This document shows, piece by piece, positions 27,746 through 62,510 of a stretch of 64,000 nt of DNA. Numbering within the stretch: the stretch's first letter is position 1; every line of letters starts with the position of its first letter. A program made the translations under genes and the position numbers. Source of the DNA: Elusimicrobium minutum Pei191 (GTDB lineage: Bacteria; Elusimicrobiota; Elusimicrobia; Elusimicrobiales; Elusimicrobiaceae); assembly GCF_000020145.1 (NCBI RefSeq), contig NC_010644.1:558001-622000 (forward strand), given 5' to 3'. The notes below the pieces were generated by a model. That model had not been told where the DNA came from. It worked only from the letters and a program-made list of their open reading frames with translations, and made no database searches.

Positions 27746-27830
27746 TATTACAATCATTATTGACACTAGAAGTCATAAATTATATCGTATAAATTAGTTT
27801 TTTTATATTATGTGTAAAGGAATAAAAGAG

Positions 27831-29735
27831 ATGAAAAAAGGGTTCACCTTAATAGAAATAGCTGTGGTAGTTTTAGTAATAGCTATTTTAGCGGCTATAG
27901 CTTTGCCGCAGTACAGAAAGTCGTTAGAACGCTCAAGAGCTGCCGAAGCTTTTGACATCCTTACAGAGATAAGGAACAAACAAGAAGCAAGAGACTTGCT
28001 TGGCACCGGCACCGCCAAAGGCTATACTATAAAGTTTAGCGATTTGGGGGAAGTAATAGCGGGCAAAACCTCCACAACAAACACGTTAGACACAAAACTT
28101 TTTTCATATGTTCTTTCAGACAACCCCTACCCTCAGGCGTACGCCAAAAGAAAAGATTTAGATTATTCAATAGTTCAAACCAAAGGCTACCAAGACAGCG
28201 CATTGTGTTGTATAGGTAAAGACTGCGATATGGTAGATAATGTTTTAAAAGGGTGTGAGAAGACAGCGTGTCCTACAACATGCGCGGCTGGATATAAAAG
28301 AACAGGGTACTTTTTTTCAGAAGACGGGCCTTGCTGTGAAGCCAAAACGTCGTGCCCGACAACATGTCCTACGGGACAAAAAAGAAGCAGCGTGCAGTAT
28401 ACGGAAGATGGAGCGTGCTGCGTAGCCAAAACATCATGCCCGACAACATGTCCTACAGGCCAGCAGAGGACAAGCGTACAATATAGTGAAGACGGAGCAT
28501 GCTGCGTATCAAAAACGTCGTGTCCCGCAACATGTCCTACAGGTCAAAAGAGGACAAGCGTACAATACAGTGAAGACGGAGCATGTTGCACGGCTAAAAC
28601 GGCTTGTCCCGCATCATGTCCTGCCGGAGAAGAAAGAACAAGCGTGCAATACAGTGAAGACGGAGCGTGTTGCACAGCTGTAAAATGTGCTGATGATAAT
28701 AAAAGTCTTTACTTAAACTCTTCAAACGGTTTTTGGTCTGATACACTTTGTAAAGGTATTTGCTGCGGGGTGGGGTATTATCCCGTTGATAAAGGAACAT
28801 ATTTAACTTGTTATAACGGAGTTATGTACGGCAGTGAGGCGGTTTGCGAAGATAACCCAATACCTTGCGGCAGCGGGCAAATACTTGTTGGTGGAGTGTG
28901 TAAAACGGCGTGCCCTTCTACGTGTCCCACAGGCCAAAAGAGAACAAGTTCCCAGTATTCTGAAGACGGAGCGTGCTGCGTGGCTAAAACAGCGTGTCCC
29001 GCCACATGTCCCACGGGCCAGGAAAGAACAAGCGTGCAATACAGTGAAGACGGAGCGTGCTGCCAAACAAAAGCATGTCCCACAGGACAAACCCTTGTTG
29101 GGGGAGTATGCAAAACAGCGTGTCCTGCGACATGTCCTACGGGCCAGGAAAGAACATCCATGCAATACAGTGAAGACGGAGCGTGCTGCCAAACAAAAAC
29201 ATGTCCCACAGGACAAACCCTTGTTGGTGGAGTATGTAAAACAGCGTGTCCCGCCACATGTCCCACGGGCCAGGAAAGGACATCCGCGCAATACAGTGAA
29301 GACGGAGCGTGCTGCAAAGCAAAAACATGTCCCACAGGGCAAACGCTTGTCGGAACTGTTTGTAAAACCAATTGCCCGTCAGCCTGTCCGACAGGTTATG
29401 CAAGAAGTTTGGTTAATTATACTGAAGACGGCGCCTGCTGTAAGCCTCAGGTAGTGGCATATAATTGCCAACCTGTTCCGGGAGCCGGTTTAACTGGCGG
29501 ACCCGGTGACATTTGGATAGGAGCCACTATGGCAAACAATGGAACAGCTACTTCAAGTCATGTTGTTTCAACCAGAGTTGATTACCAAACAGGCTCCGGT
29601 TATTCAGGCTCAGCATATCAGGATATTGTAATACCCCAGGGAGCTAAGTACGGAATTTTGGAATTTTCTGCTTACACGCCTTCAGGAGACACGGGTGTTA
29701 CAAATTGTACAGTTACTGTGATTTCAGTTAACTAG
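27831..29735 (+). CDS. modular prepilin with ten four-Cys repeats
   Basis: 634 aa. Residues 1-30 are a perfect prepilin leader and helix ([20 protein letters not shown]; cleavage G|F, Glu5). A globular pilin domain follows to about 145. Then come ten 28-residue units of the form CP-x-TCP-x-GQ-x-R-(T/S)S-x-QY-x-EDGACC, four Cys each, interrupted by one 74-residue Cys-rich segment and by CPTGQTLVGGVCKT spacers. A 94-residue C-terminal domain ends it (IWIGATMANNG, Gly/Ser/Thr-rich). Normal pilins here are 147-170 aa. Start at 27831 because seven extra upstream codons are not pilin-like. Probably a minor tip pilin carrying a stalk and head; unlike anything I can name. Confidence 0.85.
   Translation: MKKGFTLIEIAVVVLVIAILAAIALPQYRKSLERSRAAEAFDILTEIRNKQEARDLLGTGTAKGYTIKFSDLGEVIAGKTSTTNTLDTKLFSYVLSDNPYPQAYAKRKDLDYSIVQTKGYQDSALCCIGKDCDMVDNVLKGCEKTACPTTCAAGYKRTGYFFSEDGPCCEAKTSCPTTCPTGQKRSSVQYTEDGACCVAKTSCPTTCPTGQQRTSVQYSEDGACCVSKTSCPATCPTGQKRTSVQYSEDGACCTAKTACPASCPAGEERTSVQYSEDGACCTAVKCADDNKSLYLNSSNGFWSDTLCKGICCGVGYYPVDKGTYLTCYNGVMYGSEAVCEDNPIPCGSGQILVGGVCKTACPSTCPTGQKRTSSQYSEDGACCVAKTACPATCPTGQERTSVQYSEDGACCQTKACPTGQTLVGGVCKTACPATCPTGQERTSMQYSEDGACCQTKTCPTGQTLVGGVCKTACPATCPTGQERTSAQYSEDGACCKAKTCPTGQTLVGTVCKTNCPSACPTGYARSLVNYTEDGACCKPQVVAYNCQPVPGAGLTGGPGDIWIGATMANNGTATSSHVVSTRVDYQTGSGYSGSAYQDIVIPQGAKYGILEFSAYTPSGDTGVTNCTVTVISVN
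28266..29450 (+). repeat. array of about 84-bp coding repeats (10 units)
   Basis: In-frame tandem repeats encoding the four-Cys unit. Units 1-5 are contiguous; units 6-10 are spaced by 45-bp CPTGQ(T)LVGGVCKT spacers. Sequence such as AGTGAAGACGGAGCGTGCTG recurs almost unchanged, so the repeats are recombinogenic at DNA level. The same units recur at 30581-31249. Confidence 0.93.
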
Positions 29736-29746
29736 TTTATTTTTTA

Positions 29747-29784
29747 AAACACCGCCTGCTTTTAATGAGCGGGCGGTGTTTTTT
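29747..29784 (+). terminator. intrinsic terminator
   Basis: AACACCGCC(T)GC, loop, GC(G)GGCGGTGTT, then six T. Ends the ten-repeat pilin and lies just upstream of the structured repeat. Confidence 0.88.
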
Positions 29785-29796
29785 ATGAACACCTCA

Positions 29797-29945
29797 CGCC
29801 ATGCGTAAGCCGGGAAAAAGATATTTTCTTGATTTCACAACGTCTCTGCAGTACAAGGCGGAGGCGTTATTGTTTGTTGTTAAGTGAAATCGAAAAGCGA
29901 AGCTTTGAAACAAAAGAAATCCCGGGCGTGAGCTTGGGGAGTTTC
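29797..29945 (+). repeat. structured intergenic repeat, copy A
   Basis: About 150 bp, matching 62281-62425 over most of its length (blocks TTGATTTCA, AACG.CTCTGC, TGTTTGTTG, GTGAAATCG, TTTGAAACAAAAGAAA, CCCGGG.GTGAGC). It folds as nested helices: outer CCGGGA 29810-29815 with TCCCGG 29920-29925; middle GATTTCAC 29831-29838 with GTGAAATC 29884-29891; inner AACGTCTCTGC 29839-29849 with GCGGAGGCGTT 29858-29868; side hairpin AAAGC GAA GCTTT 29894-29906. Non-coding. Could be a structured RNA, a MITE or a REP-like element. It fills most of the gap between the two repeat pilins. Confidence 0.8.
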
Positions 29946-29961
29946 CTTGCGTCTTATAGTA

Positions 29962-29988
29962 TTGACATTATTAAAAAGAAGATATAAA
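29962..29988 (+). promoter_or_regulatory. possible promoter for the seven-repeat pilin
   Basis: TTGACA at 29962-29967 and TATAAA at 29983-29988, spacer 15 bp (short). The paralogous upstream region at 27758 also has ATTGACA. The leader to the ATG would be about 150 nt. Confidence 0.4.
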
Positions 29989-30142
29989 CTTCAAAGCAAG
30001 GAGTATATTTTGCTTTTTTCGCTTCTAAATATCTCACGCTTTAATACCAATACTAAGTAGAAATTATTTTTTTACGGCAACCTTTCTAGCATATTTGCAT
30101 AAAGCAAAATATAGCCTTATTTTTAAAACGGAAAGGTAAAAA

Positions 30143-31744
30143 ATGAAGAAACGAGGATTCACCTTAATAGAAATAGCTGTAGTAGTTTTAGTAATAGCTA
30201 TTTTAGCTGCGGCAGCTTTGCCGCAGTACAGAAAGTCGTTAGAACGCTCAAGAGCTGCCGAAGCTTTTGACATCCTTACAGAGATAAGGAATAAACAAGA
30301 AGCCAGGGATTTACTTGGCACGGGGACGGCCAAAGGCTATACTGTAAAGTTTAGCGATTTGGGGGAAGTAATAGCGGGTAAAAATTCCACAACAAACACA
30401 TTAGACACAAGCCTGTTTACTTATACGCTTTCAAATAACCCATATCCGCAGGCATATGCCAAAAGGAAGGATATGGATTATTCGATAGTTCAGACAAAGG
30501 GGTATCAAGACAGTGCGTTATGTTGTTTGGGAAGGGATTGTAAAGTTGTAGACAGCGTTTTAAAAGGGTGTGAGAAGACAGCGTGCCTTACAACATGCGC
30601 AACGGGATATAAAAAAACGGGGTACTTTTTTTCGGAGGACGGGCCTTGCTGTGAAGCAAAAACGTCGTGTCCGACAACATGTCCCGCAGGGCAGCAGAGA
30701 ACAAGTGCACAATATAGCGAAGACGGAGCGTGTTGCGTATCAAAAACGTCGTGTCCCGCAACATGTCCTACGGGGCAGAAGAGGACAAGCGTACAATATT
30801 ATGAAGACGGAGCTTGTTGCACGGGTAAAACAGCCTGTCCTACAACGTGTCCTACAGGCCAGCAGAGGACAAGCGTACAATATAGTGAAGATGGAGCCTG
30901 CTGCGTAACAAAAACAGCGTGTCCTGCCACATGTCCCACAGGTCAGGAAAGAACATCCATGCAATACAGTGAAGACGGAGCGTGCTGTCAGTCAAAATCT
31001 TGCGGTAGCGGACAAACCCTTGTAGGCGGGGTATGTAAAACAGCGTGTCCCGCAACATGCCCTTCCGGTCAGGAAAGAACCTCAAGCGGGTATTCTGAAG
31101 ACGGCGTTTGTTGCCAAACAAAAACATGTACCACTGGTCAGACGCTTGTTAACGGAGTATGTAAAACAGCGTGTCCCGCAACATGCCCCTCCGGTCAGGA
31201 AAGAACCTCAAGCGGATATTCTGAGGACGGAGCGTGCTGTAAAACAAAATCATGTCCTTCTGGCCAATATTTAACAAACGGTATATGCTGTCTTAACGCA
31301 CAGGTGTCTAAAGACGGTAAAACATGTATATATCTTTATAAACCCGAGGTTATTAAAGTGGGTATACTGGTTGACTGTCATAACAATTACAGCTTTGTAG
31401 ATAAAAAGAAAACACAATGTTACAGGACTGGGGCCCCCAGATACTTTGAGGGGGGGAAATTGCCGTACGTAGCCGCAGGCGGCGGATGCACCGCTCATTA
31501 TTCATACTATAATGGCGGTAATTGGTGGGAAGGCGGAATAGCGCACGGTACGCCGTCAGACTGTAATAACAGTATTTCCGACCAACAGGCTTGCGATAAT
31601 AACTGCAAAGGCGCGACATGTTCCTTTAAATGTATTAAAACCAAGTCTTACGGGGACAGGTGCGGCACATATAAATGTTCCAACGGTATGCATTGCGATA
31701 ATGCGGAAGGTTCGGGTACTATGCTAAGGTGTGTAAGGAAATAA
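30143..31744 (+). CDS. modular prepilin with seven four-Cys repeats and a distinct head
   Basis: 533 aa. MKKRGFTLIEIAVVVLVIAIL again gives the prepilin leader and Glu5. Residues up to about 146 are nearly identical to the paralogue at 27831. Seven four-Cys repeats follow (about 147-369), the last three separated by GQTLV.GVCKT spacers. The C-terminal domain (about 370-533) is unrelated to that of its neighbour: Cys-, Gly- and Tyr-rich, with GGNWWEGGIAHG, DNNCKGATCSFKC and a closing Cys-rich knot. AACGGAAAGG precedes the ATG. The common base with different heads suggests alternative pilus-tip adhesins. Extracellular, disulfide-stabilised; needs prepilin peptidase (not in the window). Confidence 0.85.
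   Translation: MKKRGFTLIEIAVVVLVIAILAAAALPQYRKSLERSRAAEAFDILTEIRNKQEARDLLGTGTAKGYTVKFSDLGEVIAGKNSTTNTLDTSLFTYTLSNNPYPQAYAKRKDMDYSIVQTKGYQDSALCCLGRDCKVVDSVLKGCEKTACLTTCATGYKKTGYFFSEDGPCCEAKTSCPTTCPAGQQRTSAQYSEDGACCVSKTSCPATCPTGQKRTSVQYYEDGACCTGKTACPTTCPTGQQRTSVQYSEDGACCVTKTACPATCPTGQERTSMQYSEDGACCQSKSCGSGQTLVGGVCKTACPATCPSGQERTSSGYSEDGVCCQTKTCTTGQTLVNGVCKTACPATCPSGQERTSSGYSEDGACCKTKSCPSGQYLTNGICCLNAQVSKDGKTCIYLYKPEVIKVGILVDCHNNYSFVDKKKTQCYRTGAPRYFEGGKLPYVAAGGGCTAHYSYYNGGNWWEGGIAHGTPSDCNNSISDQQACDNNCKGATCSFKCIKTKSYGDRCGTYKCSNGMHCDNAEGSGTMLRCVRK
30581..31249 (+). repeat. array of about 84-bp coding repeats (7 units)
   Basis: Same unit as 28266-29450. Units 1-4 are contiguous, units 5-7 are spaced by 45-bp spacers. 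Several units are nearly identical to units of the upstream gene at nucleotide level, consistent with recent duplication or ongoing exchange. Confidence 0.92.
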
Positions 31745-60458: not shown

Positions 60459-62210
60459 ATGTCAAATACTGATTTGCAAACCGCAAGGCACTCGCTTTCC
60501 CATATTATGGCTCAGGCCGTGCAGGAATTATTTCCGGGCACGCGTTTAGGCATAGGTCCCGCGATTGAAAATGGGTTTTATTATGATTTTGAGTCGGACC
60601 ATAAATTTGTGCCCGAGGATTTAAAAGCCATTGAAGCTAAAATGAAGGAAATTATTAAAGCCAAACAGCCGTTTGCTTGTAAAAACATGCCAAAGGCTGA
60701 GGCGGTTAAATTCTTTTCAGACAAGGGCGAACACTTTAAAGTAGAACTTATTAACGAACTTGAGGACGGCAGCATTTCCGTTTATACAAACGGGGATTTT
60801 GTTGACCTCTGCAAAGGCCCGCACGTTGAGCACACGGGTAAAATAAACAATTTTAAACTTACCCATATCGCAGGAGCTTACTGGAAAGGCGATGAAAAAC
60901 GCCCCATGCTTCAGCGCATTTACGGCCTTGCTTTTGAAACTAAAGACAAGCTTAACGAATATATTAAACAACAAGAAGAAGCCGCCAAACGCGACCACCG
61001 CAAATTAGGCATTGAACTTGATTTGTTCAGCATCAGTGAAGACATAGGCCCCGGTTTAATTTTAATGCATCCTAAAGGTGGTATGTTAAGAAAGGTTGTT
61101 GAAGACTGGATTAGAGACGAAAATATTAAACACGGTTATGACTTGGTTTATTCGCCCCATATCGCAAGGCTGCACCTTTGGCAAAAAAGCGGACACGCCA
61201 ATTTCTATTCCGAAAATATGTTTCAGCCTATAGAAGTTGACGACCAGCAGTACCAGCTTAAACCTATGAACTGTCCTTTCCATATAGCTATTTATGAGTC
61301 GCACTTAAGGTCATACCGTGATTTACCAGTAAGGCTTGCCGAACTGGGTACGGTTTACAGATATGAACGCAGCGGCGTTGTTCACGGTCTTTTGCGTGTA
61401 AGAGGTTTTACGCAAGACGACGCGCACATTTTCTGCACTCCCGAACAAATGAACGGCGAAATTGAGGATTGCTTTAACTTTGCCATGTTGGTTATGAAAA
61501 CATTTGGTTTTGAAAAATTCTCGGTAGAGCTTTCCACCTGGGATGAAACCAAACCTGAAAATTACACCGGTGGCAAAAAAGACTGGGAGGAGGCGCAAAA
61601 CGCCCTTGAAAGCGTGTTAAAGAAGAACAATGTGCCTTTTACCGTACATGCGGGTGAAGCTGCTTTTTACGGTCCCAAAATCGATATTAAAGTTATGGAC
61701 GCTATAGGAAGATATTGGCAGCTTTCCACAATTCAGTTTGACTTTAACCTGCCCCAGAAATTTGAGCTTGAATATGTTTCGCCCGAAGGCAGAAAAAGAC
61801 CTCTTATGGTGCACAGGGCTTTACTAGGCTCAATTGAAAGGTTTTTAGGCGTTTTAATTGAACATTACGCGGGCTTATTTCCGTTATGGCTTGCGCCTGT
61901 GCAGGTAAAACTTTTAACTCTTACGGACGACCAGTTTGACTTTGCCAAAGACGTTGTTAAACAAATGAAGCTTGCAGGTTTAAGGGCAGAGCTTGACTCC
62001 AGGCCTGAAAAACTTGGCCTTAAAATAAGGGAGGCGCATGTTGAAAAGATACCCTACTCCATAGTGATAGGCGCTAAAGAAGCGGAAAACAAAACGCTTA
62101 CACTTAGGTTAAGAAGCGGCAAAAATGTTGAAGGCCTTAGCGTTGGGGATGTTATAGCAAAACTTAAGGAAGAGGCCGATACAAAGAGTTTAAAACCTTT
62201 GTTTGAATAA
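60459..62210 (+). CDS. thrS: threonyl-tRNA synthetase lacking the TGS domain
   Basis: Charges tRNA-Thr (one such tRNA lies at 31807). 583 aa against about 640 in E. coli. The chain begins at the N2 editing domain (ARHSLSHIMAQAVQELFPG with HxxxH; Cys of DLCKGPHV), so the N-terminal TGS domain is absent. The catalytic core has the three zinc ligands in MKPMNCPFHIA, TQDDAHIFC and VHRALLGSIERF, followed by the anticodon domain. AGAGGAAC before the ATG; only a short leader, no T-box. Confidence 0.95.
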   Translation: MSNTDLQTARHSLSHIMAQAVQELFPGTRLGIGPAIENGFYYDFESDHKFVPEDLKAIEAKMKEIIKAKQPFACKNMPKAEAVKFFSDKGEHFKVELINELEDGSISVYTNGDFVDLCKGPHVEHTGKINNFKLTHIAGAYWKGDEKRPMLQRIYGLAFETKDKLNEYIKQQEEAAKRDHRKLGIELDLFSISEDIGPGLILMHPKGGMLRKVVEDWIRDENIKHGYDLVYSPHIARLHLWQKSGHANFYSENMFQPIEVDDQQYQLKPMNCPFHIAIYESHLRSYRDLPVRLAELGTVYRYERSGVVHGLLRVRGFTQDDAHIFCTPEQMNGEIEDCFNFAMLVMKTFGFEKFSVELSTWDETKPENYTGGKKDWEEAQNALESVLKKNNVPFTVHAGEAAFYGPKIDIKVMDAIGRYWQLSTIQFDFNLPQKFELEYVSPEGRKRPLMVHRALLGSIERFLGVLIEHYAGLFPLWLAPVQVKLLTLTDDQFDFAKDVVKQMKLAGLRAELDSRPEKLGLKIREAHVEKIPYSIVIGAKEAENKTLTLRLRSGKNVEGLSVGDVIAKLKEEADTKSLKPLFE

Positions 62211-62230: not shown

Positions 62231-62263
62231 AAAAAATTCCCGCTTTAAGGCGGGAATTTTTTT
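62231..62263 (+). terminator. intrinsic terminator of thrS
   Basis: AAAATTCCCGC TTTAAG GCGGGAATTTTTTT, 20 bases after the stop. Confidence 0.92.
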
Positions 62264-62280
62264 ATGAGAGTGCAAAGCAC

Positions 62281-62425
62281 CGCCAGTGTGAGCCGGGGGA
62301 CGGATAGTATCTTGATTTCATAACGCCTCTGCTTTACTGGCGCGGAGAGGTTGCTGTTTGTTGTTGGGTGAAATCGCCAAGCGAGGCTTTGAAACAAAAG
62401 AAACCCCGGGTGTGAGCCTGGAAAG
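62281..62425 (+). repeat. structured intergenic repeat, copy B
   Basis: Matches 29797-29945. Outer helix CCGGGG 62293-62298 with CCCCGG 62404-62409: an A-U pair of copy A is a G-C pair here, a compensatory change. Middle GATTTCAT 62314-62321 with GTGAAATC 62368-62375; inner AACGCCTCTGC 62322-62332 with GCGGAGAGGTT 62342-62352 (two mismatches). Side hairpin AAGC/GCTT. It lies directly after a terminator and 86 bp before a pilin gene, like copy A. Confidence 0.8.
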
Positions 62426-62510
62426 TTTTGTTTTTCTAATTTTAAAAAAATACAAATTTATTATAATTTTATATACTATAAACCAATATAATTTATATAA
62501 AGGACTTTAT

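What the first reader, a model, noticed from the sequence alone, without database searches (positions are those of the whole stretch)
29797..29945. Structured repeat upstream of pilin genes, with compensatory change
Seen: about 150 bp at 29797 recurs at 62281. Both copies follow a terminator and precede a pilin gene. Nested helices are conserved, and the outer helix changes from A-U to G-C between copies (29815/29920 versus 62298/62404), which argues for selection on RNA or cruciform structure. Inferred: a pilin-associated cis RNA, a small RNA, or a mobile MITE/REP element.
Basis: seen in the sequence. Interest (0 to 1): 0.7.

Follow-up and report, generated by a model that had tools for sequence, protein, structure and literature searches.

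The report
Fossil mobile repeat behind gene terminators
The repeat next to two pilin genes is one of about 31-42 scattered copies of a small jumping DNA element that lost its own transposase gene and lands just behind the stop signals of genes; the pilins are mostly a coincidence.

Summary
The repeat is real, but it is not a pilin RNA. Only 3 of 42 sit in front of a co-oriented pilin. Each copy is about 165 nt: a left hairpin, a central palindrome, a small GCGAAGC-type hairpin and a right terminator-like hairpin. A script finds a host terminator ending at the left border in 32 of 42 copies (75 of 3000 random positions). 33 of 42 lie between convergent genes, and 35 of 42 are oriented with the replication fork. 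Related copies occur in a sister genus. There the same ends flank an intact IS200-type Y1 transposase gene, and an orthologous site is empty in four relatives. Best reading: a non-autonomous IS200/IS605-family element (PATE/MITE type), spread in a burst by single-strand transposition into the lagging-strand template behind intrinsic terminators, now decaying without a partner transposase. The A-U/G-C 'compensation' is in the letters but does not exceed shuffles over 31 copies. This is a new family of a known kind. The terminator preference, shared by three Y1 lineages here, is the least ordinary part.

The parts
29748..29780 (+). host intrinsic-terminator-like hairpin of the upstream pilin-like gene (27810-29735): the insertion target of copy 1
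   Evidence: read (AACACCGCCTGC..GCGGGCGGTGTT then T tract); same arrangement at 32 of 42 copies
29780..29786 (+). TTTTTAT: T tract and TTAT flank, proposed left cleavage/target site
   Evidence: TTAT or TTGT in the first 10 nt of 38 of 42 copies
29787..29947 (+). element copy 1 (non-autonomous IS200/IS605-type element)
   Evidence: model R1 match 29780-29949, 165 bits, E 1.1e-27; R1 was built from a set that includes this copy
29798..29814 (+). left subterminal hairpin (P2), decayed in this copy
   Evidence: alignment and consensus fold
29831..29891 (+). central palindrome (P3); its loop is inverted relative to most copies
   Evidence: 7 of 31 copies have the inverted loop
29894..29906 (+). 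small hairpin AAAGC-GAA-GCTTT (P4)
29920..29939 (+). right subterminal, terminator-like hairpin (P5)
   Evidence: terminator-like site; the right-end profile matches the IS right end
62232..62263 (+). host terminator behind the tRNA-synthetase gene (60459-62210), target of copy 2
62266..62431 (+). element copy 2
   Evidence: model R1 match 62259-62433, 183 bits, E 5.9e-31
62280..62303 (+). left subterminal hairpin (P2) of copy 2
62314..62375 (+). central palindrome (P3) of copy 2
62376..62391 (+). small hairpin (P4) of copy 2
62406..62421 (+). right subterminal, terminator-like hairpin (P5) of copy 2

Best explanation
The repeat is a non-autonomous transposable element of the IS200/IS605 type (PATE/MITE-like). 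Its two ends carry subterminal hairpins. A Y1 (HUH) TnpA supplied in trans would cut it as single strand and paste the top strand into the lagging-strand template, 3' to a TTAT/TTGT site lying directly behind the hairpin and T tract of an intrinsic terminator. It amplified in one burst in the ancestor of this genome, whose partner transposase is now gone, and the copies have decayed independently. Copies that survive mostly fill convergent intergenic gaps, where their right-end hairpin can act as a second, bidirectional terminator. Shown: copy number, architecture, terminator and convergent siting, fork orientation, presence/absence in relatives, and shared ends with an IS200-type tnpA element in relatives. 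Inferred: the single-strand chemistry, the guide pairing, the burst, and the terminator role.
For: 31-42 scattered copies on both strands. Star-like tree, mean divergence from consensus 17.9%. Sister-genus copies with the same architecture (profile against these copies E down to 5.8e-16). In relatives an intact tnpA (NCBIfam IS200/IS605 transposase, 111.5 and 113.3 bits against a cut-off of 55; ISHp608 transposase in PDB, E 1.4e-16) is flanked by the same ends. The right-end profile from this genome's copies hits the IS right end at E 2.3e-11 and 1.2e-10; the sister-genus left-end profile hits the IS left end at 1e-9. Site of L110 empty in 4 relatives. Terminator at the left border 32 of 42 against 75 of 3000 random. 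Fork orientation 35 of 42, p=1.5e-5; 26 of 31, p=1.9e-4; within convergent gaps 27 of 33, p=3.2e-4.
Against: No matching tnpA in the own genome, so the partner is seen only in relatives. This genome's own left-end profile does not find the IS left end significantly (best at the L137 left end 5.6 bits, E 0.84); the left-end link runs through the sister-genus copies. Generic GC-rich hairpins also score against the right-end profile (L042 at 7.7e-6). No exact base-level empty site was found, so 'no target duplication' is not proven. The tnpA genes do not co-occur neatly with the short copies (6 of 16 genomes with any Y1).
Confidence: 0.88

Rival explanations
1. A functional structured RNA (3'-UTR element, sRNA or bidirectional terminator module) kept by selection in convergent gaps; mobility is ancient or incidental.
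For: Strong folding (mean z -3.2 over 31 strong copies; -7.4 for the L032 copy). The central stem has different but complementary sequence in sister-genus subfamilies. One pair in the central stem covaries (GC 9, AU 7, CG 2). Right-end hairpin kept in old copies.
Against: Pairing over 31 copies is 82.7% against 81.5% in shuffles. Single transitions give G-U 173 and A-C 117; by my subtraction about 134:117 without the two pairs whose commonest state is G-U, so little RNA-level selection. No Rfam match for the window at gathering thresholds, and no match over a family's gathering score at the element in six loci tried. No R1 hit in either congener.
Confidence: 0.07
2. REP/REPIN-type element mobilised by the genome's only Y1 gene, a RAYT-like protein at about genome 650,458-651,240.
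For: It is the only Y1 gene found in the genome, and it also sits right behind a terminator.
Against: That gene is framed by its own inverted repeat (TTTTGGGACAAGGGGCC...), unlike the element ends. It scores 71.1 bits, below the RAYT cut-off of 80. No GTAG-type motif stands 5' of the hairpins: the commonest states are AACA on the left (8 of 31) and GAAA on the right (15 of 31).
Confidence: 0.04
3. Pilin-associated cis-regulatory RNA.
For: Both window copies precede pilins. 9 of 42 copies lie within 600 bp of a pilin start (2.5 expected by rotation, p=0.0015).
Against: Only 3 of 42 precede a co-oriented pilin, and most of the rest converge on unrelated genes. At 29962-29990 a promoter-like site lies between copy 1 and the pilin, so the element would be outside its transcript (a consensus match only; none was found for copy 2).
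Confidence: 0.01

Closest known systems
PATEs (palindrome-associated transposable elements) of Haloquadratum and Halanaerobium
   Same: Short, no transposase gene, palindromes near both ends that match those of IS605-type elements; no long terminal inverted repeats (PMC3119063 and PMC7290912, passages read).
   Different: Different sequences and host phylum; inserted behind intrinsic terminators; a conserved central palindrome of its own; no partner gene left in the genome.
IS200-group insertion sequences (tnpA only)
   Same: The same ends flank an IS200-type tnpA in relatives. Insertion 3' to a fixed tetranucleotide, subterminal hairpins and lagging-strand orientation are described for the family (PMC6006769, PMC7290912 and PMC5371812, passages read).
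   Different: The copies here carry no gene.
REP/BIME/REPIN with TnpA_REP
   Same: Many intergenic palindromic copies tied to Y1 transposases (PMC6006769 and PMC8266576, passages read).
   Different: No GTAG guide, two unlike hairpins at the ends, and a link to IS200-type rather than REP-type TnpA.
Group IIC introns (recalled)
   Same: Also insert behind terminators (recalled, not tested).
   Different: RNA/reverse-transcriptase mechanism; no RVT_1 match in the genome.

Membership tests
IS200/IS605-family non-autonomous element (PATE) | subterminal palindromes at both ends | tested here: met
   P2 and P5 in the consensus fold and in sister-genus copies
IS200/IS605-family non-autonomous element (PATE) | ends shared with an element that encodes a Y1 (HUH) IS200-type TnpA | tested here: met
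   in relatives: L136, L137; not in the own genome
IS200/IS605-family non-autonomous element (PATE) | insertion 3' to a fixed tetra/pentanucleotide | tested here: met
   TTAT 31 and TTGT 7 of 42 copies at the left border
IS200/IS605-family non-autonomous element (PATE) | no target-site duplication, no long terminal inverted repeats | tested here: inconclusive
   none visible in flanks or at the L110 site, but no exact empty site; ends are complementary over about 6 nt only
IS200/IS605-family non-autonomous element (PATE) | orientation follows replication (top strand in the lagging-strand template) | tested here: met
   35 of 42 and 26 of 31; GC-skew switch between about 800 and 872 kb
IS200/IS605-family non-autonomous element (PATE) | guide tetranucleotide 5' of each hairpin pairs with the cleavage site | tested here: inconclusive
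   commonest left AACA (8 of 31) and right GAAA (15 of 31) with TTAT and TCAT/TTAT ends; suggestive, pairing rules partly recalled
IS200/IS605-family non-autonomous element (PATE) | excision and insertion by TnpA in trans | not testable with these tools
   needs biochemistry
REP/REPIN with RAYT | GTAG/GGAG-type tetranucleotide 5' of the palindrome; copies flanking the RAYT gene | tested here: not met
classical MITE of a DDE transposon | terminal inverted repeats and target duplication | tested here: not met
   no long terminal inverted repeats or visible duplications in 42 copies read by eye
pilin cis-regulatory RNA | copies mainly upstream of pilin genes | tested here: not met
   3 of 42 (plus copy 2 where the ORF caller missed the pilin)
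pilin cis-regulatory RNA | covariation of the proposed helix | tested here: not met
any Rfam family | covariance-model match over gathering score | tested here: not met

The most novel reading that the evidence does not exclude
Y1 transposases of this bacterial family choose intrinsic terminators as targets by structure: the terminator hairpin, extruded on the lagging-strand template and followed by T tract plus TTAT, is part of what the transpososome reads. If so, three Y1 lineages (this element with its IS, a second IS200 clade, and a RAYT-like gene) share a 'safe-site' targeting rule that gives them harmless landing sites and hands the host spare bidirectional terminators.
Probability: 0.25. 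Interest if true: 0.55.

Novelty: new member of a known kind. Interest (0 to 1): 0.35.

Why it matters
It explains a repeat in a little-studied phylum without invoking pilin regulation, and links it to an IS200-type transposase in relatives. It also suggests that single-strand transposons here land right behind intrinsic terminators and mostly survive between convergent genes, which could explain how many bidirectional terminators arise. My literature searches (PMC open-licence library only) listed no paper describing this targeting for IS200/IS605 elements or this family in Elusimicrobiota; I judged that from listings and abstracts and read passages of five papers only.

Tried and rejected
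Rejected: pilin cis RNA (3 of 42 copies); known RNA family; group II intron derivative (no RVT_1); mobilisation by the resident RAYT-like gene (own, different ends); classical MITE. Integron attC was considered from the scattered positions and ruled out by inspection only.

Led nowhere: RNAalifold on the 25-copy alignment gave only 6 pairs and no covariation. The exact empty-site search at the secG-like site of L136 showed terminators without the IS in several relatives, but flanks too diverged for a base-level junction. A tree without the loop columns was too poorly supported to say whether the inverted loop arose once or often. Partial tnpA hits in G060 were contig-end truncations, not deletion intermediates. 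The 11 weak copies (E 9e-11 to 0.002) may include false hits; results are given for 31 and 42 where both were computed.

Correction to a script count: one search reports 34 of 42 convergent; it missed the pilin after copy 2, so I use 33 of 42 (recount). The 11 of 84 pilin-neighbour count is my hand count plus that pilin; the gene total (1,529) in its test is recalled. The G-U:A-C figure 134:117 is my subtraction.

Full report
What was checked. The two copies are real (80% identity over about 148 nt, E 1.7e-30), each behind a terminator-like hairpin and in front of a pilin-like ORF. The window is bases 558,001-622,000 of a single-contig genome of 1,643,562 bases. I recall this size as that of Elusimicrobium minutum Pei191; no call names it.

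Copy number. BLAST with copy 1 gave 25 matches at E<1e-10. A covariance model from those 25 (R1; nearly sequence-only, 6 pairs) found 31 copies at E<=1e-15 and 42 at E<=0.002 in the genome. The strongest 31 align end to end. Their tree is star-like with long tips, and mean divergence from consensus is 17.9% (range 11.5-30.2%): a burst followed by independent decay. The 11 weaker copies keep both ends while the middle is unlike.

Anatomy. The consensus folds into four hairpins in a row: P2 (left), P3 (central palindrome with a T-rich bulge), P4 (AAAGC-GAA-GCTTT) and P5 (right, terminator-like). Folding is stronger than in shuffles (mean z -3.2 over 31 copies, -1.5 over the 11 weak ones). In 7 of 31 copies the P3 loop is inverted.

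Is it RNA-level selection? Over 31 copies 82.7% of cells form standard pairs against 81.5% in shuffles; 40 cells change on both sides against 27.7, 9 of them in a single pair. Shuffles seldom reach the overall covariation score (0 of 500) or the number of two-sided cells (2 of 500), so a weak signal exists, but the count of pairs with two-sided change is ordinary (119 of 500). G-U and A-C single transitions are 173 and 117, about 134:117 by my subtraction of two pairs whose commonest state is G-U. Palindromes kept by ssDNA function at the time of spread, with inter-arm template switching, explain this as well as RNA would; that step is inference.

Neighbourhood. A script finds a hairpin plus T tract ending at the left border in 32 of 42 copies, against 75 of 3000 random positions. 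The upstream gene is co-oriented in 40 of 42. 33 of 42 copies lie between convergent genes (34 by script; one corrected after one search confirmed a missed pilin). Among terminators without a copy in the same stretches, 23 of 58 face an antiparallel gene; 33 of 40 against 23 of 58 gives Fisher p=2.7e-5. Copies 308,921(-) and 309,125(+) flank one terminator on its two sides. GC skew of the fetched pieces changes sign between about 800 and 872 kb. 35 of 42 copies (26 of 31) point away from the inferred origin, p=1.5e-5 (1.9e-4); inside convergent gaps, where gene direction cannot dictate it, 27 of 33 (p=3.2e-4). This puts the top strand in the lagging-strand template, as reviewed for IS200/IS605 elements (PMC5371812, passages).

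Pilins. The genome has 76 N_methyl matches over cut-off. 9 of 42 copies lie within 600 bp of one (2.5 expected by rotation, p=0.0015), and pilins are 11 of 84 neighbours (p=0.003 with a recalled gene total). Only 3 copies precede a co-oriented pilin. I infer that pilins, often single-gene units, simply offer many terminators.

Relatives. DNA search in 40 genomes found the element only in the own genome and, weakly, in one of a sister genus. R1 found it in 16 of 90 family genomes: the own one and 15 of genus g6, none in the two congeners. The g6 copies share order and ends, but the central stem has other, still complementary sequence.

The partner. Y1_Tnp (PF01797) search of 16 relatives hit 6. 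In L137 (G043), L136 (G086) and less clearly L135 (G002, same genus) a tnpA of about 143 aa (split by a stop codon in L137's copy) stands between the element's ends. L137's left end is nearly identical to that of the short copy L110. With end profiles, this genome's right end hits L136 and L137 at 2.3e-11 and 1.2e-10, in L136 directly behind the stop codon. The g6 left end hits L137 at 1e-9, while this genome's own left-end profile finds no significant left end (at the L137 left end 5.6 bits, E 0.84). A plain terminator in L042 also reached 7.7e-6 with the right-end profile, so the hairpin alone gives part of the score. L136 and L135 are IS200/IS605 transposases by NCBIfam (111.5 and 113.3 bits, cut-off 55) and L136 matches the ISHp608 transposase in PDB (E 1.4e-16). 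Matches to the L136 protein at E<=1e-10, which include the second clade at about 32-36% identity, occur in 18 of 90 family genomes, not in the own one. By eye, 7 of the 9 autonomous copies that I inspected lie directly behind a terminator (exceptions L135 and L174), as do 5 of 5 of a second Y1 clade with other ends (L130-L134) and the RAYT-like gene here.

Empty sites. For L110 in G047, 10 loci of relatives were inspected. Four had both flanks on one locus, and all four (G060, G066, G064, G049) have the same convergent gene pair with a terminator and no element. Divergence prevents a base-level junction.

Border sequence. TTAT (31) or TTGT (7) of 42 at the left border; right end TTAT, TCAT or TTGT in 34 of 42; base motifs 5' of the hairpins AACA (8 of 31) and GAAA (15 of 31). 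IS200/IS605 elements insert 3' to a fixed tetra/pentanucleotide read by a guide 5' of the hairpin (PMC6006769 and PMC7290912, passages). The pattern fits; the pairing was not tested.

Judgement. The element works like, and by the tests possible here belongs with, the transposase-less IS200/IS605 derivatives called PATEs (PMC3119063, passages). What is new is the family, its host group and its siting. Whether siting is targeting or survival is open: border-exact placement behind the hairpin argues for targeting, convergent enrichment for survival.

Noticed in passing
about genome 650,458-651,240 (L042:4459-5241): The genome's only Y1 gene found is a RAYT-like ORF framed by TTTTGGGACAAGGGGCC.../inverted copy, inserted directly behind an intrinsic terminator.
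   Followed up: partly
L130-L134 (relatives): A second IS200-type clade with different ends (GGCTAGGCCGGTGG...) also sits right behind terminators in 5 of 5 copies seen.
   Followed up: partly
29831-29891 and 6 other copies: The loop of the central palindrome is inverted in 7 of 31 copies, scattered on a poorly supported tree made without the loop: possible repeated template-switch inversion.
   Followed up: partly
genome 894,881-895,047 (copy 27): A partial tandem duplication of the element's left end lies just upstream of this copy.
   Followed up: no
genome 308,921-309,278 (L078): Two copies in opposite orientation flank one bidirectional terminator.
   Followed up: partly
27810-29735 and 30143-31744: Two long pilin-like ORFs (641 and 533 aa) with N_methyl heads lie side by side; the DNA of the second repeats a Cys-rich module.
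   Followed up: no
G060 (L177, L189, L192, L194): G060 appears to carry several near-identical autonomous IS copies broken at contig ends; a good place to look for active transposition.
   Followed up: no
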